Positions 11,635 through 34,504 of a DNA stretch of 37,687 nucleotides are shown one piece after another. The stretch lies in the NCBI GenBank assembly GCA_021413675.1, contig JAIOQA010000211.1, forward strand, positions 1 to 37,687, written 5' to 3'. Below the pieces are notes generated by a model. That model was given only the letters and a program-made list of their open reading frames with translations. It had not been told where the DNA came from and searched no databases. A program made the position numbers and the translations under genes. Source of the DNA: Deltaproteobacteria bacterium (GTDB lineage: Bacteria; Myxococcota_A; Polyangia; Haliangiales; Haliangiaceae). The stretch's first letter is position 1. Each line of letters opens with the position of its first letter.

Positions 11635-13419
11635 CTACTCCGCGATCGGCTGCAGCTGACCGAAGCCGTGGGCGCGGACGTAGTTGATGTGCATGCCGCG
11701 GCAGCGGGCGCGCTCGCGGCAGCCGTCGCAGCGCAGCGGCCGCGCGAGGAACCGCTCGGTGATGTAGCGCTTCGTGTAGCGGAAGATCTCGAGCCGCCCG
11801 TCGGGGCGCAGCATCGCGGTGTCGGCGGTGCGCGGCTCGGGGCGCGGCGCGCGGCCGAGGACGCACGCGGTCACGTTCTCGACCGGGATCGCCGGCGCGA
11901 TCGGCGCGAGCCGCGCGAAGAACGCGGGGAGATCCAGATCGTTCGCGGTCGCGTCCGAGACCCGCTCGTAGGTCGGCTGGCGCAGCACCAGCCGCGGTGA
12001 GGTCGCGTGGTCGAGGATCCAGGCCTCGAGATCGCGGCGCAGCGGCACGACCACCTCGAAGCTGGCGTCGATCGCGAGCAGCGCAAGCGCTTGTGCCGCG
12101 TCGCGCGCGACCGCGCGGACCAGGTGCTTGCCATCGAGCGCTTCAGCATCGAGCTGCTCGCGCAGCCCGGCGTAGTCGGCGAGCTCGAGCGCGATCTCGC
12201 CGACGGTCGCGAACCCGGCCGCGGTGGCGCGCGCGGTCGCGAGATCCGGCGCGACGATCTGCACGACCCGCGCGCCGCCGTGCGCGGCCAGCTCGACCGG
12301 CGGGCGCCGCGGCTCGAGCGGCGCGCTCGCGACGAACATCGGCAGGCGGCGCTTGCCGTCGTCGCTCGGGGCGCTCGCCTCCGCGATCGCCGCCGCGCGC
12401 TTGGCGCTCGCCGGATCGCCGCCGTAGATCGGCGGGAGCGTGGCCTCCCAGCCGGTGTCGACCCGGATCACGTCGAAGCGATCGGCGATCGTCGCGCGCA
12501 CGTCATCGAGCGTGTCGCACAGCGGCTGCAGGTAGCAGTGCCGGCACTGCTCGGGCTGGCGGCAGTGCAGCGGTTCGCCGCGCTCGAGCAGGAGCTCGTA
12601 CTCCTCCTGCCGGCCGCGGACCTCGTCGTTGAGCTTGTACGGATCCTGGATCAGATCCTCGAAGCCCTCGCAGTGCGCCGGCGGGAAGCGGTTGAGCCAG
12701 ATGTGCATGTCGGGCTTGCGCGCCCACGCGAACGCCTCCTTCAGGTACGGCTGCATCTCGGCGAGGTCGTAGAACAGGATCTCCTTGCCGTCGGTGTACG
12801 CGCGGCCGAACGGGATGATGTGCAGCAGGTCGAACTCGCGCACGCCCTTCGCGACGAAGGTCTCGATCAGCGCGGGCAGCTGGCGCACGTTGCCGCGGTT
12901 GACGCAGACGTCGATGTTCACGATCGGCCGGCCGTCGGCGAGCGCGTGCTCGAGCCCCGCGACCTCCTGCTCGAACGCGCCGGCGACGCCGACCAGCGCG
13001 TCGTGGATCTTGGCGTTGGGCCCGTGGATCGAGAACGTGATCTCGCCGAGGCCGGCGTCGAGCGCGCGGGTCAGGAACTCGCGATACGCGAACAGCCGGC
13101 CGTTGGTGACGGTCTGGATGCGGGGATAGCCGGCGAGCTTGCCGAGCTTCACGAAGTCCACGAACTGCGGATGGATCGTGGGCTCGCCGCCCGACAGGAT
13201 CAGCCGGGTCGCGCCCTTGCGCCGCCCGTCGAGGATCTGGCGCTTGACCTCCTGCACGTCGCGCATCTCGCCGTCGTGGGCGCGCGAGTCGAGGCAGAAG
13301 ATGCAGTGGTCGTTGCAGTCGTAGGTCAGCCGGACCCAGTTGCGCTTGTCGTGCGCCGCCTCCTCGCGCACGACGATCTCGTCGGGCACGACTCCTCCTG
13401 CGGCGGACTCCGGTGGCAC
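11635..13419 (-). CDS. Radical SAM protein with canonical N-terminal half and cluster-less second half with its own auxiliary Cys motif
   Basis: From the GTG at 13419 the protein has 594 residues. C35-C39-C42 in CNDHCIFCLDSR binds the SAM cluster; LILSGGEPTIHPQF, VTNGRLFAY and FSIHGPNAKIHD follow in the usual order. A first auxiliary Cys set is CRQPEQCRHCYLQPLC. The second half, from about residue 340, reads like a barrel without the CX3CX2C motif and ends with CDGCRERARCRGMHINYV, the same auxiliary signature as its neighbours. Two starts compete: GTG 13419 sits six bases after a TATGCT box (leaderless), while GTG 13389 follows AGGAGG by four bases (residues MPDEIVVREE). A 19-base inverted repeat lies just upstream. 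Cytosolic Fe-S enzyme; the substrate is unknown. Confidence 0.85.
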   Translation of the reverse strand: MPPESAAGGVVPDEIVVREEAAHDKRNWVRLTYDCNDHCIFCLDSRAHDGEMRDVQEVKRQILDGRRKGATRLILSGGEPTIHPQFVDFVKLGKLAGYPRIQTVTNGRLFAYREFLTRALDAGLGEITFSIHGPNAKIHDALVGVAGAFEQEVAGLEHALADGRPIVNIDVCVNRGNVRQLPALIETFVAKGVREFDLLHIIPFGRAYTDGKEILFYDLAEMQPYLKEAFAWARKPDMHIWLNRFPPAHCEGFEDLIQDPYKLNDEVRGRQEEYELLLERGEPLHCRQPEQCRHCYLQPLCDTLDDVRATIADRFDVIRVDTGWEATLPPIYGGDPASAKRAAAIAEASAPSDDGKRRLPMFVASAPLEPRRPPVELAAHGGARVVQIVAPDLATARATAAGFATVGEIALELADYAGLREQLDAEALDGKHLVRAVARDAAQALALLAIDASFEVVVPLRRDLEAWILDHATSPRLVLRQPTYERVSDATANDLDLPAFFARLAPIAPAIPVENVTACVLGRAPRPEPRTADTAMLRPDGRLEIFRYTKRYITERFLARPLRCDGCRERARCRGMHINYVRAHGFGQLQPIAE

Positions 13420-14059: not shown

Positions 14060-16426
14060 ATGCGCGCCCGTCGGATCGCGGTGATCCACCCGCCGGTGTC
14101 GGTGGCGCGCGACTTCATCGACTATCCGTACCTCGCGGACCTCGGCGCGGTGCAGCTCGCCGCGGTGCTGCGCGACGCGGGCCACGCGGTGACGCTGGTC
14201 GATGCGTACGCGATGCCTGGATCGTCCTTGATCTGGCGCGACGACGATCGCGCGCACCTGGGCGCGCCGGTCGCCGACGTGCTCGCGCGGGTGCAGGCCG
14301 GGATCGATGCGCCCTTCGATGCGATCATCGTCGCGCTCACGCCCTTCCACCGGCCGCCGCACCGCGACGACGTCCTCGCGGCGCTGCTGGTCGGGCTCCA
14401 ACGCGACCACGCCGCGCCGATCGTCCTCGCCGACGCCTACCAGTCGGGCCAGCACTACGTCGACACCGACGACGGCGCGGTGCTCGCCGCGTATCCCGAG
14501 GCCCGCGCCTACGTGAAGTACGAGGCGGAGGTCGCGATCCCGGCGCTCGTCGCCAGCGATCCGATCCCCGCGGGCACCCACCGCGGCGCGTCGCCTGCGC
14601 TCGCCGACCTGCCGTTTCCGGCCTGGGACCTCGTCGATCTGCCAGCGCGCGATCGCTTCAGCCGCGCGGTCATGCGCGAGCTCGGCCGCGGCCGCTGGGA
14701 GTTCCCGATCGATGGCCGCACGCTGCCGATGGTGACCTCGCGCGGCTGCCCGTTCACCTGCGCGCACTGCAGCTCGAACCCCGAGCGCTTGCCCGACGAG
14801 CCCAAGCTCCAGCGCCGCTATCCGCCGGAGCGCCTGGACGCGTACCTCGCGGCGATGGTCCGCGATCACGGCGCGACCCGGCTCGCGGTCCTCGACGAGC
14901 TGATCAACGTCAACGCCGCCCACTTCGATCACTTCCTCGAGACCATCACCGCGCTCGACGTCGCGTTCGAGCTGCCCAACGGCCTGCGCGCCGACTACCT
15001 CGAGCCGCGCCACCTCGGTCGCATGCGCGGCCGGGTCACGACCGTGAGCGTCAGCGCCGAGAGCGGCTCACAGCGCGTGCTCGACGAGAGCGTCGGCAAG
15101 CGCCTCGATCTCGCCGAGATCCGCCGGGTCGCCGCCGATGCCCAGCGCGCCGCGGTGCCGCTGATGATCCACTACATGATCGGCCTGCCCGGCGAGACCG
15201 CCGAGGAGATCAACCAGACGCTCGAGCTCGCGCTGACCTTGCACGACGAGCACGGCGCGGTCCCCGCGGTGCAGTTCGCGACGCCGCTGCCGGGCACGCG
15301 GCTCGCGGGGACCTCGGGCGCGCCCCCGGCGAGCCGCGCGCTGCCGGTCATCGCCGACTGGGGCCCGCACTTCCAGCGCGGCGGCGACGCGTCGCTGTCG
15401 CAGGTCGACGCCGCCACCCTCCGCACGTTCATGGCCACGTTCCGCGCGCGCCTCGCCGCCTCGGCGGGACCGCAGAAGCTGATCATGAACGTGACCTACG
15501 TGTGCAACAACCACTGCACGTTCTGCGCGGTGGGCACGCGGACCCAGCTCGACGGTCATCCCGTGCGCCAGCGCGAGCACCTCGCCAAGTACCGGCGCCA
15601 CGGCGTCCACATGGTCGACTTCGACGGCGGCGAGCCGACGATGAACCCGGAGCTGATCCCGCTGGTGCGCTACGCCCGCGCGATCGGCTACGACCGCATC
15701 AACGTCACGACCAACGGCCGGATGTGCGCGTACCCGGAGTTCGCGACCAGGCTCGTGCGGTCCGGGCTCACCACGCTCCTGTTCAGCGTCCACGGCGCGA
15801 GCGCGCGCAGCCACGGTCGCGAGGTCGGCGTCGCCGAGGCCTTCGACCAGACCGTGCTCGGCATCCAGCACTGCGTCGCGGCAAGGCCGCCCGGCGTCGA
15901 GCTCGGCATGAACGTGACGATCACCAAGCACAACGCCGACGAGATCCCGGCGATCGGCGACCTCGCGCTCGCCCTCGGGTTGCGCTGGATCAACCTGCAG
16001 TTCCTGACGCCGTTCGGTCGCGCCACCGCGCGCCACGCGCCCGACACCCAGGCCGCCGCCGACATCGTCATGCGCTTCATCGACAGCCACCAGGCGCGCA
16101 TGAAGATCCAGGTGATCAACCTGCCGTTCTGCTACGCGCCGGGCTACGAGCGGTTCCTCGCCGGCGATCTCAACAAGCTCCGGCGCCACATGGTCTTCGT
16201 CAACAACGAGACCGTGAACCTCGCCGATTACCTCGCGGAGCACCGGGTGCACCGCGCCGCGTGCGCGCCGTGCCCGCACCGCTGCTTCTGCGGCGGCTTC
16301 TACGAGCTGGGCGAGACCCCCGAGCCGCCGTGGCTGGTGTCGGCCGAGTCGCTGGTCCGCCGCGTCGAGCCCGAGCTCGATCGCGGGCTCGCGCCCCGCG
16401 TCGGCACGCAGCCGCGCGACACATGA
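14060..16426 (+). CDS. Fusion of a cobalamin-type radical SAM enzyme and a SPASM-type radical SAM enzyme
   Basis: This is a 788-residue protein. Residues 1-190 look like the B12-binding Rossmann domain of class B rSAM proteins (HPPVS start, LADLGAVQLAAVLRDAGH). The first rSAM motif is C230-C234-C237 in RGCPFTCAHCSSN, followed by YMIGLPGETAEEI, typical of class B enzymes. The second module begins near residue 470 with C482-C486-C489 in CNNHCTFCAVGT, then DGGEPTMNPE, TTNGRMCAY and FSVHGASARSH. The C-terminus has CAPCPHRCFCGGFYELG, a modified auxiliary-cluster motif. Known class B enzymes often methylate unreactive carbons, while SPASM enzymes usually modify peptides, so a two-step modification is a reasonable inference. 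Its stop overlaps the ATG of the lipoprotein gene at 16423 (ATGA). Confidence 0.9.
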   Translation: MRARRIAVIHPPVSVARDFIDYPYLADLGAVQLAAVLRDAGHAVTLVDAYAMPGSSLIWRDDDRAHLGAPVADVLARVQAGIDAPFDAIIVALTPFHRPPHRDDVLAALLVGLQRDHAAPIVLADAYQSGQHYVDTDDGAVLAAYPEARAYVKYEAEVAIPALVASDPIPAGTHRGASPALADLPFPAWDLVDLPARDRFSRAVMRELGRGRWEFPIDGRTLPMVTSRGCPFTCAHCSSNPERLPDEPKLQRRYPPERLDAYLAAMVRDHGATRLAVLDELINVNAAHFDHFLETITALDVAFELPNGLRADYLEPRHLGRMRGRVTTVSVSAESGSQRVLDESVGKRLDLAEIRRVAADAQRAAVPLMIHYMIGLPGETAEEINQTLELALTLHDEHGAVPAVQFATPLPGTRLAGTSGAPPASRALPVIADWGPHFQRGGDASLSQVDAATLRTFMATFRARLAASAGPQKLIMNVTYVCNNHCTFCAVGTRTQLDGHPVRQREHLAKYRRHGVHMVDFDGGEPTMNPELIPLVRYARAIGYDRINVTTNGRMCAYPEFATRLVRSGLTTLLFSVHGASARSHGREVGVAEAFDQTVLGIQHCVAARPPGVELGMNVTITKHNADEIPAIGDLALALGLRWINLQFLTPFGRATARHAPDTQAAADIVMRFIDSHQARMKIQVINLPFCYAPGYERFLAGDLNKLRRHMVFVNNETVNLADYLAEHRVHRAACAPCPHRCFCGGFYELGETPEPPWLVSAESLVRRVEPELDRGLAPRVGTQPRDT

Positions 16427-18236: not shown

Positions 18237-19217
18237 TCACCGAAACGTGGACGCGATCGGCAGGCGCGTCGCGATCGATCCGGTCGCCGATCCGGTCATC
18301 GTTGCAGCTTGCCCTCGCGCTGCGGCGATCTCGCCATCGCCGTACCGCGCGACGTAGTCGGTGCGGACCCCCGGGCAGATCGCGCGGTGCAGGCAGCCCT
18401 CGCACGCCGGCACGTGGACCTGGCCGGCGAGCTTCGAGTGCGAGAGCGCGAACGTGGCCTCGGGCGTGACGACCTTGACCCGGCCGGCGCCGGGATCGAA
18501 CGCATGCGCGTGCAGGTCGCCGAGCAGACAGCGCGGGATGTGGAGCGAGCGCACGCGCATGGCGTGCGTCGCGGCGAGCGCGATCGCGGCGCGGACCTGC
18601 GGCAGCGCCTCGGTCATCCGCGGCATCGACGCGACGTTCCCGGCGTTGCCGTCGGTGAGCGAGACGAACCACAGATCGATCCGGCGCACGCCGAGGTCCG
18701 CGAGCCAGGCGATCGCCTCGGCCAGGCGCGGCGCGGTCTCGGTCGTGAGGATGACGTCGGCGGTGACCGGGATCGCCGCGGCGATCGCGTGGCGCAGGCC
18801 GGCGACCATCGCGGGGTGCGCGCCCTCGCGGCGGACCATGCGGTCGTAGGCGACCGGATCGTGCGTGTGGATCGAGACGTGGAGCTCGTCGCAGCCCGCC
18901 TCGACGAGGCGCGCGAGGTTGGGCGCGTGCGCGAACGCGAGGCCGTTCGACTGCACCTTGATCGCGGCGTAGCCGAGCGCGCGAGCCCGGCGGACCAGCG
19001 CGACCAGCTCGGGGCGGATCGTCGGCTCGCCGCCGGTGAACGAGACGCGGGCGTAGCCCTCGCGGCGGCCCTGCTGCAATTCGCGATCGATCGCCGGCGC
19101 GGTCAGCGCGCGCGTCCGCATCGCCGGGGTGATCGTGCAGTAGTCGCAGGCGAGGTTGCAGTCGTAGCCCATGATGACGTCGAGGAGCGGCAGCGCAAGG
19201 CGCTCGGCGTCGGTCAT
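18237..19217 (-). CDS. Radical SAM/SPASM-like protein
   Basis: The protein has 326 residues. The start ATG 19217 overlaps the stop of the upstream rSAM gene (ATGA), so the two form a coupled pair. C20-C24-C27 in CNLACDYCTITPAM is the SAM-cluster site, followed by SFTGGEPTIRPEL, VQSNGLAFA and VSIHTHDPVAYDR. The C-terminal half has IPRCLLGDLHAHAF and CEGCLHRAICPGVRTDYV, the auxiliary-cluster signature shared across this island. The same PRCLLG motif appears in the half-rSAM protein at 25958, which suggests close common ancestry. It is a cytosolic Fe-S enzyme whose substrate is not identifiable from sequence. Confidence 0.88.
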   Translation of the reverse strand: MTDAERLALPLLDVIMGYDCNLACDYCTITPAMRTRALTAPAIDRELQQGRREGYARVSFTGGEPTIRPELVALVRRARALGYAAIKVQSNGLAFAHAPNLARLVEAGCDELHVSIHTHDPVAYDRMVRREGAHPAMVAGLRHAIAAAIPVTADVILTTETAPRLAEAIAWLADLGVRRIDLWFVSLTDGNAGNVASMPRMTEALPQVRAAIALAATHAMRVRSLHIPRCLLGDLHAHAFDPGAGRVKVVTPEATFALSHSKLAGQVHVPACEGCLHRAICPGVRTDYVARYGDGEIAAARGQAATMTGSATGSIATRLPIASTFR

Positions 19218-21190: not shown

Positions 21191-22240
21191 ATGGATGAGC
21201 CCGGGCCCGCCGCCAGCGCGCCGACCGCCGAGAGCGTGGTCGAGCGCATCGCCGGCATGCAGGAGCGCGTGCACATCCTCACCGGCGCGATCTGCAACAA
21301 CAACTGCATCTTCTGCATGGAAGAGGATCGCGACGGTCGCTACGAGACCAACTCGCAGACCACCGACGAGACCGTCCGCTGGATCACGGGGCTCAACCGC
21401 AACACCGAGGAGGTCTGCTTCACCTCGGGCGAGCCGACCACCAACCCGAGCCTCGCGCGCTGGGTGAAGATCGCGCACGACCAGGGCATCCGCCGCATCA
21501 GCGTGATGACCAACGCGCGCGCGCTGTCGCACGAGCCGACCCTGCGCCGCCTGCTGGCCGCGGGCATGACCCGGTTCTACGTCAGCATCCACGGCCACGA
21601 CGCCAAGCTGCACGAGAGCCTGACCCGCACGCCGGGCTCGTTCGACCAGACGCTCGGCGGGATCGACAACATCCGCAAGTACAAGAGCCGCGGCATCGAG
21701 CTGCACACCAGCACGGTGATCACGCGGCGCAACCTGCCGCACCTCGGCGAGATCTACCGGTTCCTGCGGGCGCACGGCGTCGATCAGGTCGTGTTCAACG
21801 TGATGCAGGCCAACGGCCGCGCGAACACCTACTTCGAGCGGATCTTCCCGCCGTACACCGAGATCGCCGCGGGCGCGAAGGCGTTCCTCGACGAGCAGGG
21901 CGCGATCGAGGCGCAGGTGCCGGCGTTCCTGGTCGACATCCCGCTGTGCACGACCACGGCCTTGCCCGACTTCAACCGCGGCTACGTCGAGCGCTACGCC
22001 CACTACGAGCCGCCGACCGCGGCCGCCGAGCAGCTCATCCCGGCGTCGCGGCTCGCGTCGCGGACGATCGAGCGCGAGGATCAGAAGGCGGTGAAGGTCA
22101 CTCGCAGCGATCTCGACGACGCCCAGCGCCAGAAGCGCGCGGCGTGCGCGACCTGCCGCTACGACGCGAGCTGCGAGGGCGTGTGGACCAACTACCTCAA
22201 GCGCTACGGCTGGGACGAGTTCGTGCCCGTGCCGGCGTGA
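21191..22240 (+). CDS. Radical SAM/SPASM-like protein
   Basis: This 349-residue protein starts at ATG 21191. C35-C39-C42 in CNNNCIFCMEEDRDGR binds the SAM cluster; FTSGEPTTNPSLARWV replaces the usual GGEPT with SGEPT; VMTNARALSHEPTL and VSIHGHDAKLHESLTR follow. The C-terminal CATCRYDASCEGVWTNYL plus RYGWDEFVPV is the island-wide auxiliary signature. An extra CTTT sits about 100 residues before the end. It is predicted to be cytosolic. It is followed after 15 bases by the GFA-family gene. Confidence 0.88.
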   Translation: MDEPGPAASAPTAESVVERIAGMQERVHILTGAICNNNCIFCMEEDRDGRYETNSQTTDETVRWITGLNRNTEEVCFTSGEPTTNPSLARWVKIAHDQGIRRISVMTNARALSHEPTLRRLLAAGMTRFYVSIHGHDAKLHESLTRTPGSFDQTLGGIDNIRKYKSRGIELHTSTVITRRNLPHLGEIYRFLRAHGVDQVVFNVMQANGRANTYFERIFPPYTEIAAGAKAFLDEQGAIEAQVPAFLVDIPLCTTTALPDFNRGYVERYAHYEPPTAAAEQLIPASRLASRTIEREDQKAVKVTRSDLDDAQRQKRAACATCRYDASCEGVWTNYLKRYGWDEFVPVPA

Positions 22241-24572: not shown

Positions 24573-24578
24573 CGCGGC

Positions 24579-24588: not shown

Positions 24589-24594
24589 CTTGCG

Positions 24595-25329
24595 ATGCGC
24601 CCGCGCGCACGGGAGCATCGCGCCATGGCCGGTCCGCCGTATCCGCCCGAGTGGCTGGCGCTCCTCGAGGGCCTGAAGCCGGCGCTGCGCCTCTGGCGCG
24701 ACGACGCGCGCGCGATCGCCGAGATCCGGGCCGCCGAGCGCCGCGGCTTCGCGACCGCGCGCTCGCCGCTGCCGGCCGCCGGGCCGCGCGGGCCGCAATC
24801 GATCGTCTATCTCGCGCGCACGCCGGCGGCCGCCGAGGCGCTGCGCGCGCTCGAGGAACCGATCCTCCCGACCCGCGGCGTGGCCGCGCTCTCCACCGAT
24901 CACGTCGCGCGCCACCGCGCCCTCGGCCTTGCCCTGGGGTTCCCGGGGTGCTGCATCGACGCGTTCCTCGCGCGGCTGGTGCGCGGCGTCGACCGGCTCG
25001 CGAACGGCGATGTCGCGCACGAGGACCACGTCGCGGTCTGCGATGCGCTCGGCCTCAGCCAGGCGCTGCACGCGCGGCTCAACATGTTCCCGCGCGATCA
25101 CGGCGCGACCTGGCTGTCGCACGTGCCGTGTCGGTTCGACTGCGCACCGTCGATCGCGTACGCGGATGTGCTCCACGCTGCGTTTCACCGCCGCGACCCG
25201 GCGGCGGCCGCTGGCATCGACGCCGGGCTCGGGACCGGCGTGGCGATCGCGCAGGACGGGCGGCGCACCGCGCTCGACGACGCGCCGCCGGGCGCCTGCC
25301 GACTGGTCTTCGCGGCCGCCGAGGCGTGA
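24595..25329 (+). CDS. DUF483-like Cys-rich protein, paralogue B
   Basis: The protein has 244 residues from ATG 24595; ATG 24625 (MAGPPYPPEW) with GGGAG ten bases upstream is a credible alternative. LGLALGFPGCCIDAFLAR and HVPCRFDCAPSIAYAD match the paired motifs of the divergent neighbour, and the C-terminal third is also similar. The N-terminus contains WLALLEGLKPALRLW. No signal peptide is present. The role is unknown. Retention of the same four cysteines in both copies suggests a shared metal- or cluster-binding fold. Confidence 0.65.
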   Translation: MRPRAREHRAMAGPPYPPEWLALLEGLKPALRLWRDDARAIAEIRAAERRGFATARSPLPAAGPRGPQSIVYLARTPAAAEALRALEEPILPTRGVAALSTDHVARHRALGLALGFPGCCIDAFLARLVRGVDRLANGDVAHEDHVAVCDALGLSQALHARLNMFPRDHGATWLSHVPCRFDCAPSIAYADVLHAAFHRRDPAAAAGIDAGLGTGVAIAQDGRRTALDDAPPGACRLVFAAAEA

Positions 25330-25957: not shown

Positions 25958-26461
25958 GTGGTCGCGCCGCCGATCGCGCTGCACGGCCCCGATGCGGCCT
26001 GCCACGATCACCACGCCCAGCCCGGCGACTTCGCGCGCGCGATCGAGGCCTTGCGCGCGACCCGCGGCGCGACGGTCACCACCGCCCTCACGCGCTCGAA
26101 CTACCGCGCGCTGGCCGCGATGCCCGCCTTGCTCCACGCCCACGGCGCCGCCGCGTGGCACGTCGTCGTCGCGCCGTTCGCCGAGGCCACGACCGATCAG
26201 CCCGCGCGCTCGCCGCGCCTCGCGCTCGCCTTGCCGTTCGCGCTCCACGCCCTCGCACGCGCCGAGCAGCTCGGCCTCGCGATCGCGATCGTCGATGCGC
26301 CGCGCTGCCTGCTCGGCCGCTTCGCGCCGTCGCTGGTGATCACCGCGCCGCGATCGTTCCCCGCGCCATGCGAGGCCTGCACCGCGCGCGCGCGGTGCGG
26401 CGGCGTGGATGCGGCCTACGCCGCGCGCTTCGGCGCCGACGAGCTCGCGCCCGTAGCGTAG
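25958..26461 (+). CDS. C-terminal half of a radical SAM/SPASM protein (no SAM-cluster motif)
   Basis: The protein has 167 residues from GTG 25958. It begins at the strand usually found mid-barrel (IALHGPDAACHD) and continues with LTRSNYRALAAMPAL, DAPRCLLGRFAPSL and CEACTARARCGGVDAAYAARFG, so it matches the second half plus the auxiliary cluster of the rSAM proteins at 18237 and 33290. The CX3CX2C half and the GGEP motif are absent, and the preceding gene does not supply them. It may be a decayed gene or a stand-alone substrate or cluster domain; the intact frame and conserved Cys favour the second slightly. Its stop directly abuts the stop of the HxsA-like gene. Confidence 0.65.
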   Translation: MVAPPIALHGPDAACHDHHAQPGDFARAIEALRATRGATVTTALTRSNYRALAAMPALLHAHGAAAWHVVVAPFAEATTDQPARSPRLALALPFALHALARAEQLGLAIAIVDAPRCLLGRFAPSLVITAPRSFPAPCEACTARARCGGVDAAYAARFGADELAPVA

Positions 26462-26854
26462 CTACCAGCTGCCGTGCGAGCCGTGCGATCCGTGGCTGCC
26501 GTGCGATCCATGGCTGCCGTGCGATCCGTGGCTGCCGTGCGAGCCGTGGGATCCATGGCTGCCATGCGAACCGTGCGAGCCATGCGAACCGTGCGATCCG
26601 TGGCTCGCGTGCCCGGCGGCGAATTGCGCGCCGCCCTGGGTCTCCTCGGGCGAGGTCGGCTTGGCGAGATCCGCGTTGTCCTTCGCGCGATCCGAGAGCG
26701 CGGCCTGCTCGGGCGACAGCCCCGAGGCCGCCTTGCGCTTGAACACCGGGAACGCCTCGTCGTCACCAGCGACGTCATCCCCGTCTCCAGTCCCCGCCGC
26801 AGGCGCGTCCGCGGGTGGATCCTTCGGGCCGAGGAGATCGTCGTTGGTGCCCAT
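26462..26854 (-). CDS. hxsA: HxsA-like His-Xaa-Ser repeat peptide precursor
   Basis: The protein has 130 residues from ATG 26854. Residues 1-81 are an acidic, Ala and Gly rich leader-like part (DDLLGPKDPPADAPA, EAFPVFKRKAASGLSPEQ). Residues 82-129 are HAS followed by fifteen perfect HGS triplets, and residue 130 is Trp. His-Xaa-Ser repeats next to an HxsB maturase define the HxsA family, predicted to be modified ribosomal peptides of unknown final structure. It has no obvious signal peptide. It lies 53 bases after hxsB on the same strand; a TAGCAT box and a GGAG ribosome site in that gap may give it extra expression. His and Ser side chains are the likely targets or metal ligands after modification; this is inference. 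Confidence 0.8.
   Translation of the reverse strand: MGTNDDLLGPKDPPADAPAAGTGDGDDVAGDDEAFPVFKRKAASGLSPEQAALSDRAKDNADLAKPTSPEETQGGAQFAAGHASHGSHGSHGSHGSHGSHGSHGSHGSHGSHGSHGSHGSHGSHGSHGSW
26468..26602 (-). repeat. Tandem 9-base repeats encoding (HGS)15
   Basis: Fifteen in-frame 9-base units encode His-Gly-Ser without any amino-acid change. Codons vary: Ser is TCG, AGC or TCC; Gly is GGC, GGA or GGT; His is CAC or CAT. Parts form an 18-base higher-order unit alternating TCG and AGC serines. Confidence 0.9.
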
Positions 26855-26907
26855 GTCAGCTCTGCTCCGATGCTAGACCGAACTGGCGTCCCGGTGCCAC
26901 CACGATT

Positions 26908-28407
26908 CTACGGGCGATCCTGGAGGAAGTGGTCGCGCGGCCGGTTGGTGGTCCACTGCTCGAAGGTCTTGAGGGTCCGGGGATCGCCCTCGCCGAGCTT
27001 CTCGAACAGGTAGTCCTGGATGCCCTTGTGGACCTGGCACAGGGCGCTCTCACGCATGCGCCCGAACACGGTGCCCTGGGTCTTGTGGCTGTAGCTGGGC
27101 GGCACGCCGCAGTAGGGCAGGTAGGTGCAGTCGACGCAGTCGGGCGTGGCCTCGAGGTTCGAGGCGATCGTCACCGCGCGCACGGTCTCGTGGCCGACCA
27201 CCTCGCGGTACTTCGACGTCGCGACGTGGCCGATCTGGAAGGTCGGATCGCCCATCGCGTCGAGCATGCGGCCCTCGTCGCAGGTGAAGATCCGGCCGTC
27301 GTGGTTGTAGGCCAGCGCGCCCAGGCCCGCGCCCGCGGGCCAGCGCACGTCGAGGAAGTTGGGATCCTCGCCCTTGAGGATCTTGGTCAGGAAGATCGCG
27401 GCGTAGCGCTCGAGCACCTCCACGCCCCGGGCGTTGAGCTCGAGCATGTAGTCGACGGCCCGCCGGTAGAACGCGAGGTACTCGGCGCGCGGGTACTCGA
27501 TCTTCGGGCCGGTCTTGGCGGCGAAGCCGAACGGATCGACCGGTCGCAGGAACAGCGCGCGGCAGCCGAGCGCCACGTACGTGTCGACGACCTCCTTCCA
27601 CTGCGGCAGGGTCGCGCGCGTCGTCGTGAGCAGCGCCTCCACGTGATAGAGCGTCGGATCGAGGCCCTTGGCGGCGTAGGCCTCGTTGATGCGCTTGATC
27701 CAGCGCGACGCGGTGTCGAAGGCGCTCGCCATCGGCAGGATGCGCTGCTTGTCGTGGATCGCCGCCGGCCCGTCGATGCTGGTGCAGATCTGGACCTTGT
27801 GATCGATCAGGTACGCGAGCTTGTCCTCGTCCATGAGCGACAGGTTCGAGACCATCGTGAACTCGAGGGTCTTGGCCGCCGCACGGTTCTTGGTCAGCGC
27901 GTACACGATGATGTGCTTGACCACCGGGAAGTTCACGAGCGGCTCGCCGCCCTGGAACTCGATCGTGATGAACGGGCTGGTGGTCCGGAAGATGAAGTCG
28001 ACCATCTTCTCGGCGGTCTCGACGGTCATGTCGGTGTGGACCGCGTCGAGGTCGGCGCGCGAGGCGTGGCAGTACACGCAGGTCTCGTTGCAGCGCAGCG
28101 TGACCACGGCCATGTGCAGGTTCGGGCCGCTGTCGAGGAAGCGCTTGCGCGCGCGCAGCATCGCCGCGGCGGCGCGGACGTCGTAGTGATCGCGCAGGAA
28201 GTTGTGGGACTTGAGACGCTCGAACAGCGCGTCGCCGGGCGCGACCTTGCCGCGGGTGAACGCGTCGAACTCGGCCGGTTCGAGGAGCAGCCAGCGGCCC
28301 TCCTGATTGGTGACGAGCACGCGCGCCCCGACCCGGCGGAACCGGAACATCGCCGGGCCGCGGGTGTCGAGCTCGGCGAGCGGCGCGAGCGGCAGGTGCG
28401 TGGTCAT
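26908..28407 (-). CDS. hxsB: His-Xaa-Ser system radical SAM maturase HxsB-like
   Basis: The protein has 499 residues; ATG 28407 overlaps the upstream stop (ATGA). Residues 20-71, with RRVGARVLVTNQEGRWLLLE and PAEFDAFTRGKVAPGDALF, match the characteristic N-terminal domain of HxsB. C106-C110-C113 in CNETCVYCHASR binds the SAM cluster; EFQGGEPLVNFPVVK follows. The C-terminal SPASM region includes FTCDEGRMLDAMGD, CVDCTYLPYCGVPP and a final Cys in ESALCQVHKGIQ. Among all rSAM proteins in the window this is the only one with clear full-length resemblance to a named RiPP maturase. It should act on the HxsA peptide encoded just downstream. Confidence 0.85.
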   Translation of the reverse strand: MTTHLPLAPLAELDTRGPAMFRFRRVGARVLVTNQEGRWLLLEPAEFDAFTRGKVAPGDALFERLKSHNFLRDHYDVRAAAAMLRARKRFLDSGPNLHMAVVTLRCNETCVYCHASRADLDAVHTDMTVETAEKMVDFIFRTTSPFITIEFQGGEPLVNFPVVKHIIVYALTKNRAAAKTLEFTMVSNLSLMDEDKLAYLIDHKVQICTSIDGPAAIHDKQRILPMASAFDTASRWIKRINEAYAAKGLDPTLYHVEALLTTTRATLPQWKEVVDTYVALGCRALFLRPVDPFGFAAKTGPKIEYPRAEYLAFYRRAVDYMLELNARGVEVLERYAAIFLTKILKGEDPNFLDVRWPAGAGLGALAYNHDGRIFTCDEGRMLDAMGDPTFQIGHVATSKYREVVGHETVRAVTIASNLEATPDCVDCTYLPYCGVPPSYSHKTQGTVFGRMRESALCQVHKGIQDYLFEKLGEGDPRTLKTFEQWTTNRPRDHFLQDRP

Positions 28408-28631
28408 GCGAGCCTCGCGGCGCGGCGGCGCTCGTCGGTGAGGCCGAGCGCGAGGTTGCCGAGCTCGCCGGCCAGCGCGCGCTCGCGCTCGGGCTTGCGC
28501 GCGGTCACGCGCACGACCCAGTGGCTGGAATCCTCGGCCAGCTCGAACGCGCCGAAGCGCGCGAACTGCTTCACCGCGGCGTCGACGGCCTCGCCAGCGT
28601 AGACCGCGCGGTGGAAGCGCAGCTCGATCAC
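28404..28631 (-). CDS. Small HxsD-like protein, second copy
   Basis: The protein has 75 residues from GTG 28631, overlapping the upstream stop (GTGA) and ending in an ATGA overlap with hxsB. The pattern VIELRFHRAVYAGEAVDAAV followed by a Tyr/Phe-rich strand and ELGNLALGLTDERR resembles the HxsD pattern of an initial strand, a YxxxAvxxA helix and a closing N-x-L helix. It is much shorter than the upstream HxsD-like gene. HxsD is thought to assist the maturase, perhaps in substrate binding, but its role is unproven. The three-gene overlap chain implies equal, coupled synthesis. Confidence 0.55.
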   Translation of the reverse strand: MIELRFHRAVYAGEAVDAAVKQFARFGAFELAEDSSHWVVRVTARKPERERALAGELGNLALGLTDERRRAARLA

Positions 28632-29152
28632 GGCGCGTCCTCGTCCTTCTCGCTCGTCGGCTCGTCCTTCGCGTCGTCCTTCGCGTCGTCCTTCGCCTCG
28701 GGCTTGGGCTTCTTGGCGTACTTCTCCTCCCACGACTGCGCGATGCCGAGCGGATCCTCGAACGCCTCGTTGGAGAAGTCGAAGTCCTCGAGCTCGTCGA
28801 GCGTGGGCGGGCCCATCGCGCCGGCCAGCGCCTGCAGCGTGACCGCCTCGACGGTGACGCGGTTGTCCTTGGCGAGGCGGTGGCGATACGCGCAGCTCAG
28901 CAGCTCGTTGGCGAAGCCGCCGATCCATCGCTGCAGGGTCTCGGCGTCCTGCGCGCCCGCCTTGGGCGTGAGCACCACCTTGTGGCGCGCTTCGTCGGCG
29001 ACGTCGATCACGACCCAGCAGTCGTTGATGAACGTGAACGCGGCCGCGAAGATCGCGTCGAGCGGGTACAGCTCGCGCTGCACCAGCAGGTGGACCGAGC
29101 CCGCGACCACATCGGCGCCGGCGAGGGACTCGGGGAAGGCGGGCGTGGACAT
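28628..29152 (-). CDS. hxsD: HxsD-like protein
   Basis: The protein has 174 residues from ATG 29152. Residues 17-100 fit the HxsD pattern: VHLLVQRELYPLDAIFAAAF, FINDCWVVIDV, then GGFANELLSCAYRHRLAKD and VTVEAVTLQALAG. The C-terminus is an added acidic/basic tail with DAKDDAKDDAKDE repeats, which is not part of the family core. It is the first gene of the coupled hxsD-hxsD2-hxsB set and has its own promoter at 29159-29188. The assignment rests on pattern memory plus location beside hxsB and hxsA. Confidence 0.68.
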   Translation of the reverse strand: MSTPAFPESLAGADVVAGSVHLLVQRELYPLDAIFAAAFTFINDCWVVIDVADEARHKVVLTPKAGAQDAETLQRWIGGFANELLSCAYRHRLAKDNRVTVEAVTLQALAGAMGPPTLDELEDFDFSNEAFEDPLGIAQSWEEKYAKKPKPEAKDDAKDDAKDEPTSEKDEDAP

Positions 29153-29158
29153 GGATCG

Positions 29159-29188
29159 GTGGTACAGGGTCGCGCTCGGCGCGGTCAA
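29159..29188 (-). promoter_or_regulatory. Sigma-70-like promoter for the Hxs cassette
   Basis: On the minus strand TTGACC (29188-29183) and TACCAC (29164-29159) are 18 bases apart, and ATG 29152 is six bases further on. The -35 box contains the stop codon of the upstream rSAM-methyltransferase gene. Confidence 0.5.
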
Positions 29189-30996
29189 GCCGAGGCCGAC
29201 GCCACACGCGGGGTCCGGTAGCGCACCGCCCACTGGTTCGAGCTGGTGCGCGTCACCGGGTGGAGCGCCAGGCGCTCGAGGCCCATCGCGGCGGCGAGCG
29301 GCAGCACCGCGTCGACGTCGTCGTTGCGGTAGTGCTCGAACCGCGCCGGGCCGGCCTCAGCGCGCGCGCTCTGCGCCCGGGTGCGGACCAGGCCGAAGGC
29401 GACGTTGTCGACGATCGTGAGCACGCCGCCGGGGCGGCACAGCGCGACCAGCTTGCCGAGTGCGTCCTGGCGATCGGCGAAGTGGTTCCAGCTGCGCAGC
29501 GCGAGCACGTGATCGAAGCGCTCGACCGTGCCGAGCTCCTCGAGCGTGGACCGGCGCAGCTCGATCCACGGTCGGGTCCGCGCGATGACCTCGGCGTGGC
29601 CCAGGTCGGGCTCGACGCCGACGTAGCGGATCGCGCCGCGCGCGACCAGCGGCGCGAGGATCGCGTCGTAGCGGCCGCCAGCGCCGCACCCGACATCGAG
29701 CACGTCGCCGCGCAGCGCGCCCAGCCAGTCGCGGACGAGCGCGTCGTCGCGCTCGAAGACCTCGTCGGCGGCCGGGCCGTAGAGGCCGGTGCAGCCGTCG
29801 TGCGCGGTGCAGCCGGCGCAGCGCGGGCTGCGCATCAGCTTGACCAGATCGGTCGCGAAGTCGTCGGGCGCCGGCTTGTCGGAGACGTCGAGGTAGAGCT
29901 GCTCGCGGTCGTGCTTGATCGCGACGATCTCCTCGTCAGAGAAGTCGCGAGTGTCGGCGCGGAACCGCGCGACGTGCGGGCCGTTGGCCACGAACAGGTG
30001 GCGGCCGCGATCCCACGGCGCCGGGCCGACGCGCTCGATCGGGCAGCGGGCGTCGTCCGGGCTGGTGCGGACCTTGGCCTCGAACGTGTAGTTGAACGAG
30101 TTGGCGCGCAGCCCGCCGGTGCGCGGCCGCAGCTCGGCGGCGCCGAACGCCTCGTGGTAGCCGCGGTAGAGGCCGGGGCACCCGCCGCGCAGCGCGCAGT
30201 CGCGGCATTTCTCGTCGGGCTGGAGCTTGTTGCGATCGTCGACCGGGAAGAAGTCGGGCTCGCCGATCTCGGTCATCGACCAGTACTGATCGGTCCGCAG
30301 ATCGGCGTAGCGCGCCTCGTGGCCGGGCATGAGGCACAGCGGAAAGCCGCCGTGGGCGAAGCGCTGCGCCGGCGCCTGCGCGAGGCCGTAGTCGATCGCG
30401 TCCACGACCTTCGCCGCGGCGTCGGCGACGCGCGGCATCAGCGATGCGAACAGCGCCTTGCCGCCGCCCTTGGGCTCGACCATCGAGAACTTGAGCGTGA
30501 CGTCGGGGTAGGGGCGCAGCGCGTCGACCAGCTCGCGCAGGTGGTCGACGTTCTGGAGCGTGACGACGCAGTTGACCTTGAGATCGAGGCCGCGGCCGCT
30601 GAGCTCGGCGAGCGCGCCGTACGACTGCGCGAACGCGTCGGTGCGGACCAGCCGGTTGTGGATCGTGGCGCTGCCGCCGTGGAGCGACAGGTAGACGTAG
30701 CGCAGGCGGCGCGCCAGCAGCTGCGCGACCACGTCGGGGTAGGACAACAGGCGACCGTTGGTCACGAGCCCGAAGTCCATCCCGAGCGCCGCGACCTCGC
30801 CGGCCCAGCGGACCAGCTCGGGCCGGATCGTGGGCTCGCCGCCGGACAGCACGACCATCGTGTGGCCGAGAGCGCGGGCACGCGCGATCTTGCGCGACAC
30901 CTCGGCGGCCGTGCCGTCGATGTGCCGGACCTCGAGCGTGTGGCAGAAGGTGCAGTGGTCGTTGCACCCGTAGCCGACCTTGATCAGCGCCTTCAT
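29185..30996 (-). CDS. Radical SAM protein fused to a SAM-dependent methyltransferase
   Basis: The protein has 603 residues from ATG 30996. C11-C15-C18 in CNDHCTFCHTLEVR starts the rSAM domain; VLSGGEPTIRPELVRW, LVTNGRLLSYPDVV and LSLHGGSATIHNRLV follow. Auxiliary Cys motifs are CRDCALRGGCPGLYRGYH and a second CAGCTAHDGCTGLYG near residue 390. From about residue 405 there is a class I methyltransferase: DVLDVGCGAGG (near 430), GVEPDLGHAEV, FDHVLALRSWNHF and LCRPGGVLTIVDN. Two SAM-using activities in one chain suggest radical modification followed or preceded by methylation. It is 32 bases upstream of the Hxs cassette on the same strand, so it is the best local candidate for a second Hxs enzyme, but it does not look like HxsC. 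Confidence 0.88.
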   Translation of the reverse strand: MKALIKVGYGCNDHCTFCHTLEVRHIDGTAAEVSRKIARARALGHTMVVLSGGEPTIRPELVRWAGEVAALGMDFGLVTNGRLLSYPDVVAQLLARRLRYVYLSLHGGSATIHNRLVRTDAFAQSYGALAELSGRGLDLKVNCVVTLQNVDHLRELVDALRPYPDVTLKFSMVEPKGGGKALFASLMPRVADAAAKVVDAIDYGLAQAPAQRFAHGGFPLCLMPGHEARYADLRTDQYWSMTEIGEPDFFPVDDRNKLQPDEKCRDCALRGGCPGLYRGYHEAFGAAELRPRTGGLRANSFNYTFEAKVRTSPDDARCPIERVGPAPWDRGRHLFVANGPHVARFRADTRDFSDEEIVAIKHDREQLYLDVSDKPAPDDFATDLVKLMRSPRCAGCTAHDGCTGLYGPAADEVFERDDALVRDWLGALRGDVLDVGCGAGGRYDAILAPLVARGAIRYVGVEPDLGHAEVIARTRPWIELRRSTLEELGTVERFDHVLALRSWNHFADRQDALGKLVALCRPGGVLTIVDNVAFGLVRTRAQSARAEAGPARFEHYRNDDVDAVLPLAAAMGLERLALHPVTRTSSNQWAVRYRTPRVASASA

Positions 30997-32148: not shown

Positions 32149-33303
32149 GTGGCCAACCTCGGCTACATCCAGGTCGTCCGTCACTGCAACCACTTCTGCG
32201 GCTTCTGCTCGAACCCGGCGACGCCGTACACCCACGACCTCGCGTCGATGCAGCCGCTGGTCGACGACTTCGTCGCGCGCGGCTACTTCGGGGTGATCCT
32301 CACCGGCGGTGAGCCGACCTTGCACCCCGAGTTGCCGGCGATCGCGCGCTACGCCCGCGACCGCGGCCTGCACGTCCGGCTGATCACCAACGGCACGCGC
32401 CTCGCCGATCCGGCGTTCGCGCGCGAGCTGGCGCAGGCCGGCGTGCAGCTCGCGCACGTGTCGATCTACTCGGTGGTCGCCGCGGTCGAGGCCGAGCTGC
32501 GCGGCGTCGACGGCACGCTCGAGCGCGCCCGCGCCGCCCTCGACGCGGCGCACGCCGCCGGCATCGAGGTCAACGTCAACACGGTCATCAACCGGCGGAA
32601 CGCCGACCACCTCGATCACACCGTGCGCGTCCTGACCCGCGATCATCCGCAGGTGCGGCACTTCGTGTGGAACAACCTCGATCCGTCGATGGGCCGCGCC
32701 GAGGTCAACCAGGCCCGGTTCACGCCGCGGCTCGCCGACTTCGAGCTCAGCCTCGAGCGCGCGATGCGCCACCTGCACCGCACCGGCCGCACGTTCCGCG
32801 TCGAGAAGGTGCCGCTCTGTTACATGGGCTCGTTCCCCGAGGCCTCGACCGAGACCCGCAAGATCGTGAAGAGCGAGGAGCGCATCGTCCACTTCCTCGA
32901 CGCCAAGCAGACGGTGCGGCAGACCGCGTGGGACCACGTCTACGCCGACGGCTGCCGCGCGTGCACGCTGCGCGACATCTGCGGCGGGCTGTTCGATCGC
33001 GGCCAGGCCTACGATCCGGCGGAGCTCGCGCCGCAGTTCGTGGATCGCGACGCCATCGTGAAGAAGATCATCGAGGACCCGGGCGATCCGGCGTACCCGC
33101 TGCGCGACCTCGCGGCGTGGAAGCAGGCGTTCGCGGCGCGGCAGCGCGCCGGCGATACGAGCGGACTCGCGATCGACGCGGGGCTACCGGTCGGGACGGT
33201 CACGCCCCAGGGCGAGCGGCTCTATCAGGCGAAGCGGCGGCGCGAGGCGGTGCTGGCGCGCGAGGGCGACATCGCGCAGGAGCCGGACGTCAGCGAGGGC
33301 TGA
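32149..33303 (+). CDS. Radical SAM protein with auxiliary Cys motif
   Basis: The protein has 384 residues from GTG 32149, with GAGGA about six bases upstream inside the end of the lipoprotein gene. C13-C17-C20 in CNHFCGFCSNPATP binds the SAM cluster, very near the N-terminus. ILTGGEPTLHPELPAIA, LITNGTRLADPAF and a VSIYSV strand follow. A single auxiliary motif CRACTLRDICGGLFDRG is near residue 275, followed by DPAELAPQF and then an extra 90-residue tail absent in its neighbours. It is probably co-transcribed with the lipoprotein. Its last 14 bases overlap the 3' end of the convergent rSAM gene. Confidence 0.87.
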   Translation: MANLGYIQVVRHCNHFCGFCSNPATPYTHDLASMQPLVDDFVARGYFGVILTGGEPTLHPELPAIARYARDRGLHVRLITNGTRLADPAFARELAQAGVQLAHVSIYSVVAAVEAELRGVDGTLERARAALDAAHAAGIEVNVNTVINRRNADHLDHTVRVLTRDHPQVRHFVWNNLDPSMGRAEVNQARFTPRLADFELSLERAMRHLHRTGRTFRVEKVPLCYMGSFPEASTETRKIVKSEERIVHFLDAKQTVRQTAWDHVYADGCRACTLRDICGGLFDRGQAYDPAELAPQFVDRDAIVKKIIEDPGDPAYPLRDLAAWKQAFAARQRAGDTSGLAIDAGLPVGTVTPQGERLYQAKRRREAVLAREGDIAQEPDVSEG

Positions 33304-34504
33304 TCGGCACCAGCGCCGCGTCGCCGAACCGCGCGAGGTACGCCGACCACGCGCCACCGCAGACCCGATCGAGCGCGCAGCGCGCGCAGCCGGCGGGCTT
33401 GTGCTTGCCGGGCTCGATCGGTCCGCCGCGGCCGTCGCGGATCGCGGCGTGGTGATCGCGCACGTCGGGCGGCAGCGCGCAGGGCGGGAGCCCGCAGCGC
33501 GCCGGGATGATCGCCTCGATGCCGTGTGCGGTCGCGCGCCGGATCGCGGCGGCGAGGTGCGGCGCGAGCTGATCGTAGGGCATGAGCAGCTCGAGCGCGG
33601 TCGCGCCATCGCCGACCGGCGCGACCGGCGACAGCGTCATCGAGCGGAAGCCGGGCCAGCGCGCCGCGACCGCGTCGACCAGCGCCGGCACCTCCGCGGC
33701 GTTCAGCGCGGTGAGCACGACGACCAGGTGCACCCGCACGCCGGGCGTCTCGGCCAGCGCGTCGAGGCCGGCGCGGGTGTGCTCGAGCAGGCCGCGCGAT
33801 CCGATCAGCGCCTCGAAGGTGTCCGGATCGAGCGTGTGCAGCGAGACCTCGGCGGCGTTCATGCCCGCGTCGACCAGGCGATCGCGCAGCGGCCGGTGGT
33901 GCAGCGTCGTGCCGTTGGTCTGGACGCGGCGCGTGGCGATGCCGGCGTCGCGCGCGGCGCGCAGGTACTCGGGCAGGCGCGGATCGAGCGTGGTCTCGCG
34001 GCCGGTGAGCAACAGCTCGCGGCAGCCGGCGCGCGCGGCCGCGGCGATCTGCGCGAGCACCGCCGCGGCGTCGGGCAGGATCGTCGGCGAGTCCTCGGGC
34101 GTGTTGCAGAACCGGCAGCGCTCGTTGCACGCGCGGTTGATGCGCAGCTCGACCAGCGCGCCGCCGCCGTGGAGCACGGGCAGGAACTTCGGGCCGCCAC
34201 CCTCGAAGGTCGCGAGCGCCGCGGCGAGCCGGCGCACGACCGCCGCGGCGGCGGCGTGATCGACCCCAGCATCGGCGTAGTACGACAGGTGCAGCGCGCC
34301 GGTCGCGGCGAGATGGGTCGCGCCGGCGACGCGCGGCTCGACGCACACCGTGATCGGCGCCGCGCCGGTCAGCGCGATGTCGACCGCGGCGCGCACCGCG
34401 CTGGCCGCGACCCGCGCGATCGTCCACGGCGCGACCGACGCGACGACGCGAGCGTCATCGAGCGGGTAGACGCGCAGGAACGCGGCGAGCGGGTCCTCGG
34501 GCAT
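33290..34504 (-). CDS. Radical SAM protein with N-terminal accessory domain
   Basis: The protein has 404 residues from ATG 34504. Residues 1-105 form the accessory domain shared with the Tat-exported protein at 25389 and the rSAM protein at 818. C126-C130-C133 in CNERCRFCNTPEDS binds the SAM cluster. The usual GGEP is replaced by GRET in LLTGRETTLDPRLPEYL, then VQTNGTTLHHRPL and VSLHTLDPDTFEAL. The C-terminal CARCALDRVCGGAWSAYLARFG is the shared auxiliary signature. TAGCCT (34515-34520) is ten bases before the ATG. It is predicted to be cytosolic. Confidence 0.87.
   Translation of the reverse strand: MPEDPLAAFLRVYPLDDARVVASVAPWTIARVAASAVRAAVDIALTGAAPITVCVEPRVAGATHLAATGALHLSYYADAGVDHAAAAAVVRRLAAALATFEGGGPKFLPVLHGGGALVELRINRACNERCRFCNTPEDSPTILPDAAAVLAQIAAAARAGCRELLLTGRETTLDPRLPEYLRAARDAGIATRRVQTNGTTLHHRPLRDRLVDAGMNAAEVSLHTLDPDTFEALIGSRGLLEHTRAGLDALAETPGVRVHLVVVLTALNAAEVPALVDAVAARWPGFRSMTLSPVAPVGDGATALELLMPYDQLAPHLAAAIRRATAHGIEAIIPARCGLPPCALPPDVRDHHAAIRDGRGGPIEPGKHKPAGCARCALDRVCGGAWSAYLARFGDAALVPISPR

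What the first reader, a model, noticed from the sequence alone, without database searches (positions are those of the whole stretch)
26462..29152. Hxs-type peptide cassette with a perfect (HGS)15 core and terminal Trp
A coupled hxsD-like, short hxsD-like and hxsB set is followed by a precursor whose core is HAS, fifteen HGS and a final Trp. The families HxsA, HxsB and HxsD are known by name, but their product is not characterised to my knowledge. Two features look unusual: the long invariant HGS core (known examples in my memory have shorter, mixed H-x-S clusters) and a second small HxsD-like protein between hxsD and hxsB.
Basis: partly seen in the sequence, partly recalled or inferred. Interest (0 to 1): 0.93.

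Follow-up and report, generated by a model that had tools for sequence, protein, structure and literature searches.

The report
Radical-SAM array around an HGS-repeat peptide
This bacterial DNA encodes a small protein that ends in sixteen His-x-Ser triplets and a tryptophan, directly beside the radical-SAM enzyme gene hxsB and inside a 37.7-kb stretch with 13 radical-SAM matches; those enzymes likely modify the repeat, but the finished product and its job are unknown.

Summary
The cassette is real: a Cys-free precursor with core HAS-(HGS)15-Trp, downstream of hxsD, an hxsD-like gene and hxsB. NCBIfam already knows the kind: HxsA4, HxsB and HxsD-like pass their cut-offs; HxsD falls just below. 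The 'unusual' features are common: all 58 complete cores among 61 precursors (selected for long repeats) end in Trp; the HxsD-like gene was found in 37 of 109 loci. What is new is the surroundings. 13 of the genome's 57 Radical_SAM matches lie in this window. One is HxsC4. Others, below every HxsC-type cut-off, are co-inherited with HxsB in 282 phylum genomes: rS6-type domain in 94 (89 with HxsB), rS7 in 62 (61), a radical-SAM/methyltransferase in 22 (22), often not near hxsB in the assemblies. Best reading: a ribosomal peptide whose triplets are likely cross-linked His to Ser by HxsB and further altered by HxsC-like enzymes. The chemistry is inferred; product and role are unknown. Verdict: new variant of a known kind.

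The parts
26462..26854 (-). hxsA4: precursor protein, 130 aa (leader 26612-26854; stop 26462-26464)
   Evidence: NF038313 84.5 bits, cut-off 55; sequence
26465..26611 (-). core: HAS, (HGS)15, terminal Trp (Trp codon 26465-26467)
26908..28407 (-). hxsB: radical SAM maturase; C-terminal SPASM match is below Pfam's cut-off
   Evidence: TIGR03978 540.5 bits, cut-off 370; Pfam; CNETCVYC motif
28404..28631 (-). HxsD-like short protein, overlapping hxsD and hxsB
   Evidence: NF038315 69.4 bits, cut-off 41; model pLDDT 96.7, beta-alpha-beta-beta-alpha
28628..29152 (-). hxsD
   Evidence: TIGR03976 42.3 bits, below cut-off 50, E 7e-11; homologous to the HxsD-like protein, hhalign probability 94.6%
29185..30996 (-). 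rSMT: radical SAM + methyltransferase fusion, 603 aa, 32 bases upstream of hxsD on the same strand
   Evidence: PF04055 and PF08242 over cut-offs; matches in 22 of 282 genomes, all with HxsB
21191..22240 (+). hxsC4 (rS12)
   Evidence: NF038332 599.5 bits, cut-off 500
11635..13389 (-). rS6: HxsC4-like radical SAM protein whose N-terminal domain tracks HxsB across the phylum
   Evidence: NF038332 100.2 bits, below cut-off; 89 of 94 genomes with a match have HxsB, 12 of the 94 matches full-length
14060..16426 (+). rS7: AprD4-like radical SAM half fused to an HxsC4-like radical SAM half
   Evidence: two PF04055 stretches; AprD4 (6fd2) E 2e-10; 61 of 62 genomes with it have HxsB
18237..19217 (-). 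rS10: HxsC4-like radical SAM protein
   Evidence: NF038332 86.1 bits, below cut-off; PF04055
19214..20950 (-). rS11: degenerate N-terminal and intact C-terminal radical SAM domain
   Evidence: NF038332 115.3 bits, below cut-off; N-terminal domain lacks CxxxCxxC
32149..33303 (+). rS21: HxsC-like radical SAM protein
   Evidence: TIGR03977 92.8 bits, below cut-off; group with members from other islands, support 100
33290..34504 (-). rS22: HxsC4-like radical SAM protein
   Evidence: NF038332 82.7 bits, below cut-off
1987..3588 (+). rS2: HxsC4-like radical SAM protein with two CxxxCxxC motifs
3588..7997 (+). 1469-aa open frame: HxsC4-like radical SAM domain and a Gfo/Idh/MocA domain
   Evidence: PF04055, PF01408; NF038332 113 bits, below cut-off
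25958..26461 (+). rS17c: C-terminal half of a radical SAM protein without CxxxCxxC, tail to tail with hxsA4
   Evidence: longer relatives with the motif in other islands

Best explanation
A protein whose core is HAS-(HGS)15-Trp is encoded beside hxsB, hxsD and an hxsD-like gene, and it is likely a peptide precursor on which HxsB is predicted to cross-link each His to the Ser two residues on, while co-inherited HxsC-like radical-SAM enzymes would add further changes. SHOWN: the sequence, the family assignments, the radical-SAM array and its co-inheritance with HxsB and HxsA4. INFERRED: HxsD and its short paralogue act as adaptors that present the leader; HxsB runs along the triplets and joins the His imidazole to the Ser beta carbon (H-G-S fits the aromatic-x-residue pattern of known three-residue cyclophanes); HxsC4, rS6, rS7 and rSMT then act on the same repeat or its ends (for example methylation), giving a stiff rod with a His every third residue and Trp as the end mark. 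What the rod does is unknown; binding a metal or heme along the His ladder is the guess I would test first.
For: Families. No Cys anywhere in this precursor, and 10 of 61 distinct cores (this one included) are Cys-free, so Cys-based thioethers cannot be the conserved reaction. H, S and a terminal Trp are kept, with Gly in 913 of 997 middle positions, among precursors chosen for long repeats. Precedents for i/i+2 cross-links, His C2 to Ala C-beta (HaaB) and Phe C4 to Ser C-beta (MscB), and for one radical SAM enzyme modifying many repeats (TvgB): PMC11002830, passages seen. Array: 13 of 57 Radical_SAM matches (E<=1e-5) in this window. In the single-contig 10.3-Mb genome G177, 11 of 11 HxsC4-like matches at E<=1e-10 lie within 44 kb together with HxsB and HxsA4. 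Co-inheritance in 282 genomes: rS6 89 of 94, rS7 61 of 62, rSMT 22 of 22, HxsC4 (E<=1e-80) 35 of 35 with HxsB. In G168 and G187 a precursor lies next to HxsC4, rS6 and rSMT or rS7 without HxsB; G187 has a further precursor beside one of its HxsB genes.
Against: No chemistry is shown. HxsB's best-scoring solved relative is 5wgg, which I recall as CteB, a thioether-forming enzyme; the cyclophane-maturase models among its 25 listed hits are far below their cut-offs (YhhB 51 bits against 445). 9 of 98 HxsB genomes lack rS6, 37 lack rS7 and 76 lack rSMT, so the array is not needed for every HxsB. 82 of the 94 rS6 matches cover only about the first 300 of 584 residues, so they show the domain, not the whole protein. 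In most genomes array genes are not near hxsB in the assemblies (within 40 kb in 10 of 44 genomes for rS7, 43 of 94 for rS6, 11 of 22 for rSMT, 6 of 35 for HxsC4), so direct action on HxsA4 is inference. None of the 20 window proteins scanned with Pfam is an exporter or protease; several other ORFs were not scanned. Related genomes share ancestry, so the Fisher p-values are only descriptive.
Confidence: 0.45

Rival explanations
1. The cassette is a peptide/maturase pair but the chemistry is not a His-Ser cyclophane: HxsB changes each triplet in place (for example epimerises or dehydrogenates Ser, or oxidises His) without a cross-link.
For: H and S are both kept, which fits any His- or Ser-centred change. 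HxsB is not close to any cyclophane-forming model in its listed hits.
Against: Spacing of exactly i, i+2 with a small middle residue is what a side-chain cross-link needs; inference from the passages.
Confidence: 0.3
2. The array acts on something else (a cofactor, or other peptides) and HxsA4 is one client or a carrier; co-inheritance reflects a shared pathway, not a shared substrate.
For: Most array genes are not near HxsA4 or HxsB in most assemblies. rS7 resembles AprD4, which I recall as a small-molecule enzyme, and rSMT carries a methyltransferase domain.
Against: 61 of 62 rS7 genomes and 22 of 22 rSMT genomes also have HxsA4 at E<=1e-5; G168 and G187 place a precursor next to the array without HxsB.
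Confidence: 0.25
3. The HGS tail is an ordinary His-rich metal-binding or collagen-like low-complexity tail, and its closeness to radical SAM genes is incidental.
For: Pfam Collagen scores 29.4 bits against a gathering score of 27.2. His every third residue could bind metals (inference).
Against: 87 of 90 genomes with an over-cut-off HxsA4 have HxsB; the core has no Pro; Trp ends all 58 complete cores.
Confidence: 0.08

Closest known systems
NCBIfam HxsA4 / HxsB / HxsC4 / HxsD / HxsD-like (NF038313, TIGR03978, NF038332, TIGR03976, NF038315)
   Same: Precursor, maturase, HxsC4 and HxsD-like all score over their curated cut-offs
   Different: HxsD is just under its cut-off; the first triplet is HAS where 51 of 61 collected precursors have HCS; nine further HxsC-like radical SAM proteins stand around it that no HxsC-type model claims
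Classical Hxs system HxsA/B/C/D (Haft and Basu, not held; as cited in PMC9062424, passage seen)
   Same: HxsB family; His-Xaa-Ser repeats
   Different: HxsA model TIGR03979 gives 13.5 bits against a cut-off of 121.65; the HxsC model gives sub-cut-off matches only
Triceptides (three-residue cyclophanes: HaaB, YhhB, MscB)
   Same: Aromatic residue, any residue, then a residue with a C-beta: H-G-S fits (passages)
   Different: HxsB is not over the cut-off of any cyclophane-maturase model in its listed hits; no cross-link has been measured
TvgA/TvgB poly-cyclopropylglycine peptide
   Same: One radical SAM enzyme acting on many copies of a short repeat (passages)
   Different: TVGG repeats and Val chemistry; no array of HxsC-like enzymes known to me

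Membership tests
HxsA4-type His-Xaa-Ser system | Precursor over the NF038313 cut-off with C-terminal H-x-S triplets | tested here: met
   84.5 bits, cut-off 55
HxsA4-type His-Xaa-Ser system | HxsB over the TIGR03978 cut-off | tested here: met
   540.5 bits, cut-off 370
HxsA4-type His-Xaa-Ser system | HxsC4 over the NF038332 cut-off | tested here: met
   window 21191-22240, 599.5 bits, cut-off 500
HxsA4-type His-Xaa-Ser system | HxsD over the TIGR03976 cut-off | tested here: inconclusive
   42.3 bits, cut-off 50, E 7e-11; the HxsD-like protein is over its own cut-off
Triceptide (three-residue cyclophane peptide) | Aromatic-x-residue motif in the core | tested here: met
   H-G-S throughout; pattern from passages
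Triceptide (three-residue cyclophane peptide) | Maturase in a known three-residue cyclophane-forming family | tested here: not met
   YhhB 51.3 bits (cut-off 445), AmcB 42.0 (425), FxsB 40.4 (370); best 25 of 67 hits shown
Triceptide (three-residue cyclophane peptide) | Side-chain C-C cross-link | not testable with these tools
   needs mass spectrometry and NMR
Sactipeptide or ranthipeptide | Cys in the core as thioether donor | tested here: not met
   no Cys in the whole precursor
RiPP recognition element (PqqD-like) in HxsD | Winged-helix RRE fold | tested here: inconclusive
Collagen-like protein | Gly every third residue, Pfam Collagen over gathering score | tested here: met
   29.4 bits, gathering 27.2; no Pro in the core, so I do not file it there

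The most novel reading that the evidence does not exclude
An assembly line of about a dozen radical-SAM proteins (HxsB, HxsC4, rS6, the double-headed rS7, the radical-SAM/methyltransferase and further HxsC-like paralogues) works on one ribosomal repeat, turning HGS triplets into a rigid His-Ser cross-linked, further methylated rod with a His every third residue that carries metal ions or heme; it would be the most radical-SAM-rich peptide pathway known to me.
Probability: 0.2. Interest if true: 0.92.

Novelty: new variant of a known kind. Interest (0 to 1): 0.62.

Why it matters
Hxs systems have family names but, in the listings and passages I saw (open-licence papers), no product, chemistry or role. 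The co-inherited partners found here (rS6, rS7, rSMT, beside HxsC4) are concrete genes to co-express and delete, and a Cys-free (HGS)15-Trp substrate is a clean test peptide because thioether chemistry is ruled out. If the array really works on one repeat, it would be a very compact source of new radical chemistry.

Tried and rejected
Rejected: (1) Recent DNA slippage or chance as the source of the repeat: all differences between the HGS triplets are silent. (2) Sacti- or ranthipeptide chemistry: no Cys. (3) The idea that a pure HGS core or a second HxsD is unusual. (4) A heme role from gene neighbours. In family f23, 10 of 13 fetched HxsA4 loci have ccmE and ccmF just downstream, and in family f3, 5 of 6 fetched loci have hemL beside the precursor. 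But each is synteny within one family, and 2 f23 loci with sequence on both sides (G083, G161) keep the precursor without ccm genes (a third, G209, is cut by its contig end). Loci of other families that I fetched (f19, f37, f39, f17, f46, f54) showed neither. I keep it as a lead only. (5) HxsD as an RRE: the predicted folds do not show it, and the fold matches listed no RRE, which excludes nothing.

Led nowhere: tRNA scan (none); translations downstream of hxsB in relatives without a nearby HGS gene; paper searches for Myxococcota radical-SAM peptides and Kofleriaceae (no paper).

Limits of the counts. One extra repeat ORF, in L038, runs on past the repeat to its contig end instead of ending in Trp; it is not among the 61, whose filter asked for six or more consecutive triplets and at most six residues after them. 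51 of the 80 HxsB loci and 20 of the 29 of L009-L037 show no such run in the DNA held. The HxsA4 list has 100 places in 91 genomes, 90 of them over the cut-off plus G001 at 54 bits; split matches within one frame were typed once; distances are start to start. Of one search's rS7 places only the 45 strongest (44 genomes) were typed into. In one search, 3 of 22 genomes (G051, G056, G147) match only one half of rSMT, 8 of 62 genomes match under 600 of rS7's 788 residues in any one place.
Full report
WHAT IS THERE. On the minus strand, in order of transcription: a 603-aa radical-SAM/methyltransferase fusion (rSMT, 30996-29185), 32 bases, hxsD (29152-28628), an overlapping HxsD-like gene (28631-28404), an overlapping hxsB (28407-26908), and hxsA4 (26854-26462). 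The precursor is 130 aa, has no Cys, and ends in HAS, fifteen HGS and Trp. Profile scores put HxsA4, HxsB and the HxsD-like protein over their curated cut-offs and HxsD just below. The 15 HGS triplets are spelled in 8 different ways at the DNA level, with only silent differences, so the protein repeat is most simply held by selection.

IS THE CORE UNUSUAL? Not among its relatives. In the loci fetched by then I collected 61 distinct precursors (the window's own included) with six or more consecutive triplets at the end of an ORF; they have 8 to 42 triplets. The middle residue is Gly in 913 of 997 triplets. All 58 complete ones end in Trp; the other 3 (L056, L104, L146) are cut by the end of the held DNA. 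The first triplet is HCS in 51 of 61; this window has HAS, as do the near relative L039 (78% identical HxsB, a record titled Kofleriaceae) and L062. Ten of 61 cores have no Cys. One extra repeat ORF, in L038, runs on to its contig end and does not end in Trp. The filter favours long cores: 51 of the 80 HxsB loci have no run of three or more triplets in the DNA held. The HxsD-like gene was found by tblastn in 37 of 109 loci, HxsD in 55. The two are homologous (hhalign probability 94.6%) and are predicted to share a beta-alpha-beta-beta-alpha core.

THE ARRAY. 13 of the 57 Radical_SAM (PF04055, E<=1e-5) matches of the 10.78-Mb draft genome lie in this 37.7-kb window, against about 0.2 expected by length (arithmetic mine). 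One of them, 21191-22240, is the true HxsC4 (599.5 bits, cut-off 500). Of the twelve radical-SAM proteins other than HxsB (rS17c counted), nine have the HxsC4 model as their best NCBIfam match, but only HxsC4 itself passes the cut-off; rS21 matches HxsC best, and 806-1969 and rS17c match other models best. In the single-contig genome G177 all 11 HxsC4-like matches at E<=1e-10 lie in C1:414146-457478, together with HxsB (419678-421129) and HxsA4 (419306-419542). In G085 11 of 11 lie on contig C72 (15288-51595), in G000 10 of 12 in the window, in G284 12 of 14 and in G283 12 of 16 on the island contig. Islands from eight genomes, the window's included, share rS6, rS7 and rSMT; the other seven are 50-71% identical to the window's proteins. 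A tree of 92 radical-SAM domains puts the window's 11 domains in separate groups, each with members from other islands. Support (SH-aLRT) is 100 for rS7, rS21 and HxsB, and for two small groups (the 1469-aa frame, rS22); 93 for rSMT, 87 for rS2, 85 for rS10; and weak for rS6 (28), HxsC4 (18) and rS11 (15). So most paralogues look old rather than freshly duplicated.

CO-INHERITANCE. The same 282 genomes of the phylum were searched for each part (tables). HxsB (E<=1e-60): 98 genomes, 97 over cut-off. HxsA4 over cut-off: 90, of which 87 have HxsB. rS6 (E<=1e-50): 94, of which 89 have HxsB; the five exceptions are G139, G156, G237, G241 and G260, the first three of which do have HxsA4 over cut-off. 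Only 12 of the 94 are full-length matches; the rest cover about the first 300 of 584 residues. rS7 (E<=1e-60): 62, of which 61 have HxsB; the exception, G279, is 67% complete. rSMT (E<=1e-60): 22 of 22, three of them matching one half only. HxsC4 at E<=1e-80: 35 of 35 (17 over cut-off). Within family f3 all 8 HxsB genomes have rS6 and rS7, and the 9 listed genomes without HxsB have neither; f4 gives 4 against 5 and f8 3 against 2 in the same way (tables; only 20 negatives are listed per call). Against: in f6, G066 has HxsB without rS6 or rS7 and G139 has rS6 without HxsB; in f11, G201 has HxsB, rS7 and rSMT but no rS6. Overall 9 of 98 HxsB genomes lack rS6, 37 lack rS7 and 76 lack rSMT. The genomes are related, so p-values are descriptive.

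LINKAGE. Only 44 of 100 HxsA4 places start within 3 kb of an HxsB. In G168 and G187 a precursor (two in tandem in G187) sits next to HxsC4 with rS6 and rSMT or rS7 nearby but not HxsB; G187 has a further precursor beside an HxsB on another contig. Array genes lie within 40 kb of an HxsB in 43 of 94 genomes (rS6), 10 of 44 (rS7, the places typed in), 11 of 22 (rSMT) and 6 of 35 (HxsC4). Co-inheritance without linkage argues for a working partnership rather than hitch-hiking, but assemblies are broken, so true linkage is underestimated.

HOW IT LIKELY WORKS (inferred). H-G-S fits the motif of three-residue cyclophanes, in which an aromatic side chain is bound to the C-beta of the residue two places on. 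His-to-Ala and Phe-to-Ser cases are reported in the review PMC11002830 (passages seen), and TvgB is reported there as changing many repeat units. HxsD and its paralogue are guessed to be adaptors. rS7 joins an AprD4-like half to an HxsC4-like half; rSMT joins a radical-SAM and a methyltransferase domain.

LITERATURE. In the listings and passages I saw, HxsA/HxsB, His-Xaa-Ser and HxsD appear only as annotations and in one note that HxsB and HxsC putatively mature His-Xaa-Ser peptides (PMC9062424 and PMC8446631, passages seen). The original Haft and Basu paper is not held, and subscription papers are mostly missing, so experimental work outside this library is not excluded.

VERDICT.

Noticed in passing
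window 25958-26461: C-terminal half of an HxsC4-type radical SAM protein without CxxxCxxC, seen so in the window and in G085 of the same family, while other islands have longer relatives with the motif.
   Followed up: partly
window 23679-24626 (-) and 24595-25329 (+): Two divergent proteins with a GYPRCC / GFPGCC motif; one passes Pfam DUF483, the other is below cut-off. Relatives near hxsB in L039.
   Followed up: partly
window 3588-7997 (+): A 1469-aa open frame joining a degenerate and an intact radical-SAM domain to a Gfo/Idh/MocA oxidoreductase domain.
   Followed up: no
L175, L176, L180, L182, L184-L186, L188, L190, L191: In family f23 the HGS-repeat gene lies just upstream of ccmE and ccmF, heme-handling genes (10 of 13 fetched f23 loci).
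   Followed up: partly
L168-L171, L179: In family f3 the HGS-repeat gene lies tail to tail with hemL, near ppdK or glyS (5 of 6 fetched f3 loci).
   Followed up: partly
   Followed up: no
L038:11778-11946: A repeat ORF of the nearest relative that does not end in Trp but runs on to the contig end; assembly edge or real difference not settled.
   Followed up: partly
G279:C734:1-2142: The only genome with rS7 but no HxsB match; 67% complete.
   Followed up: no
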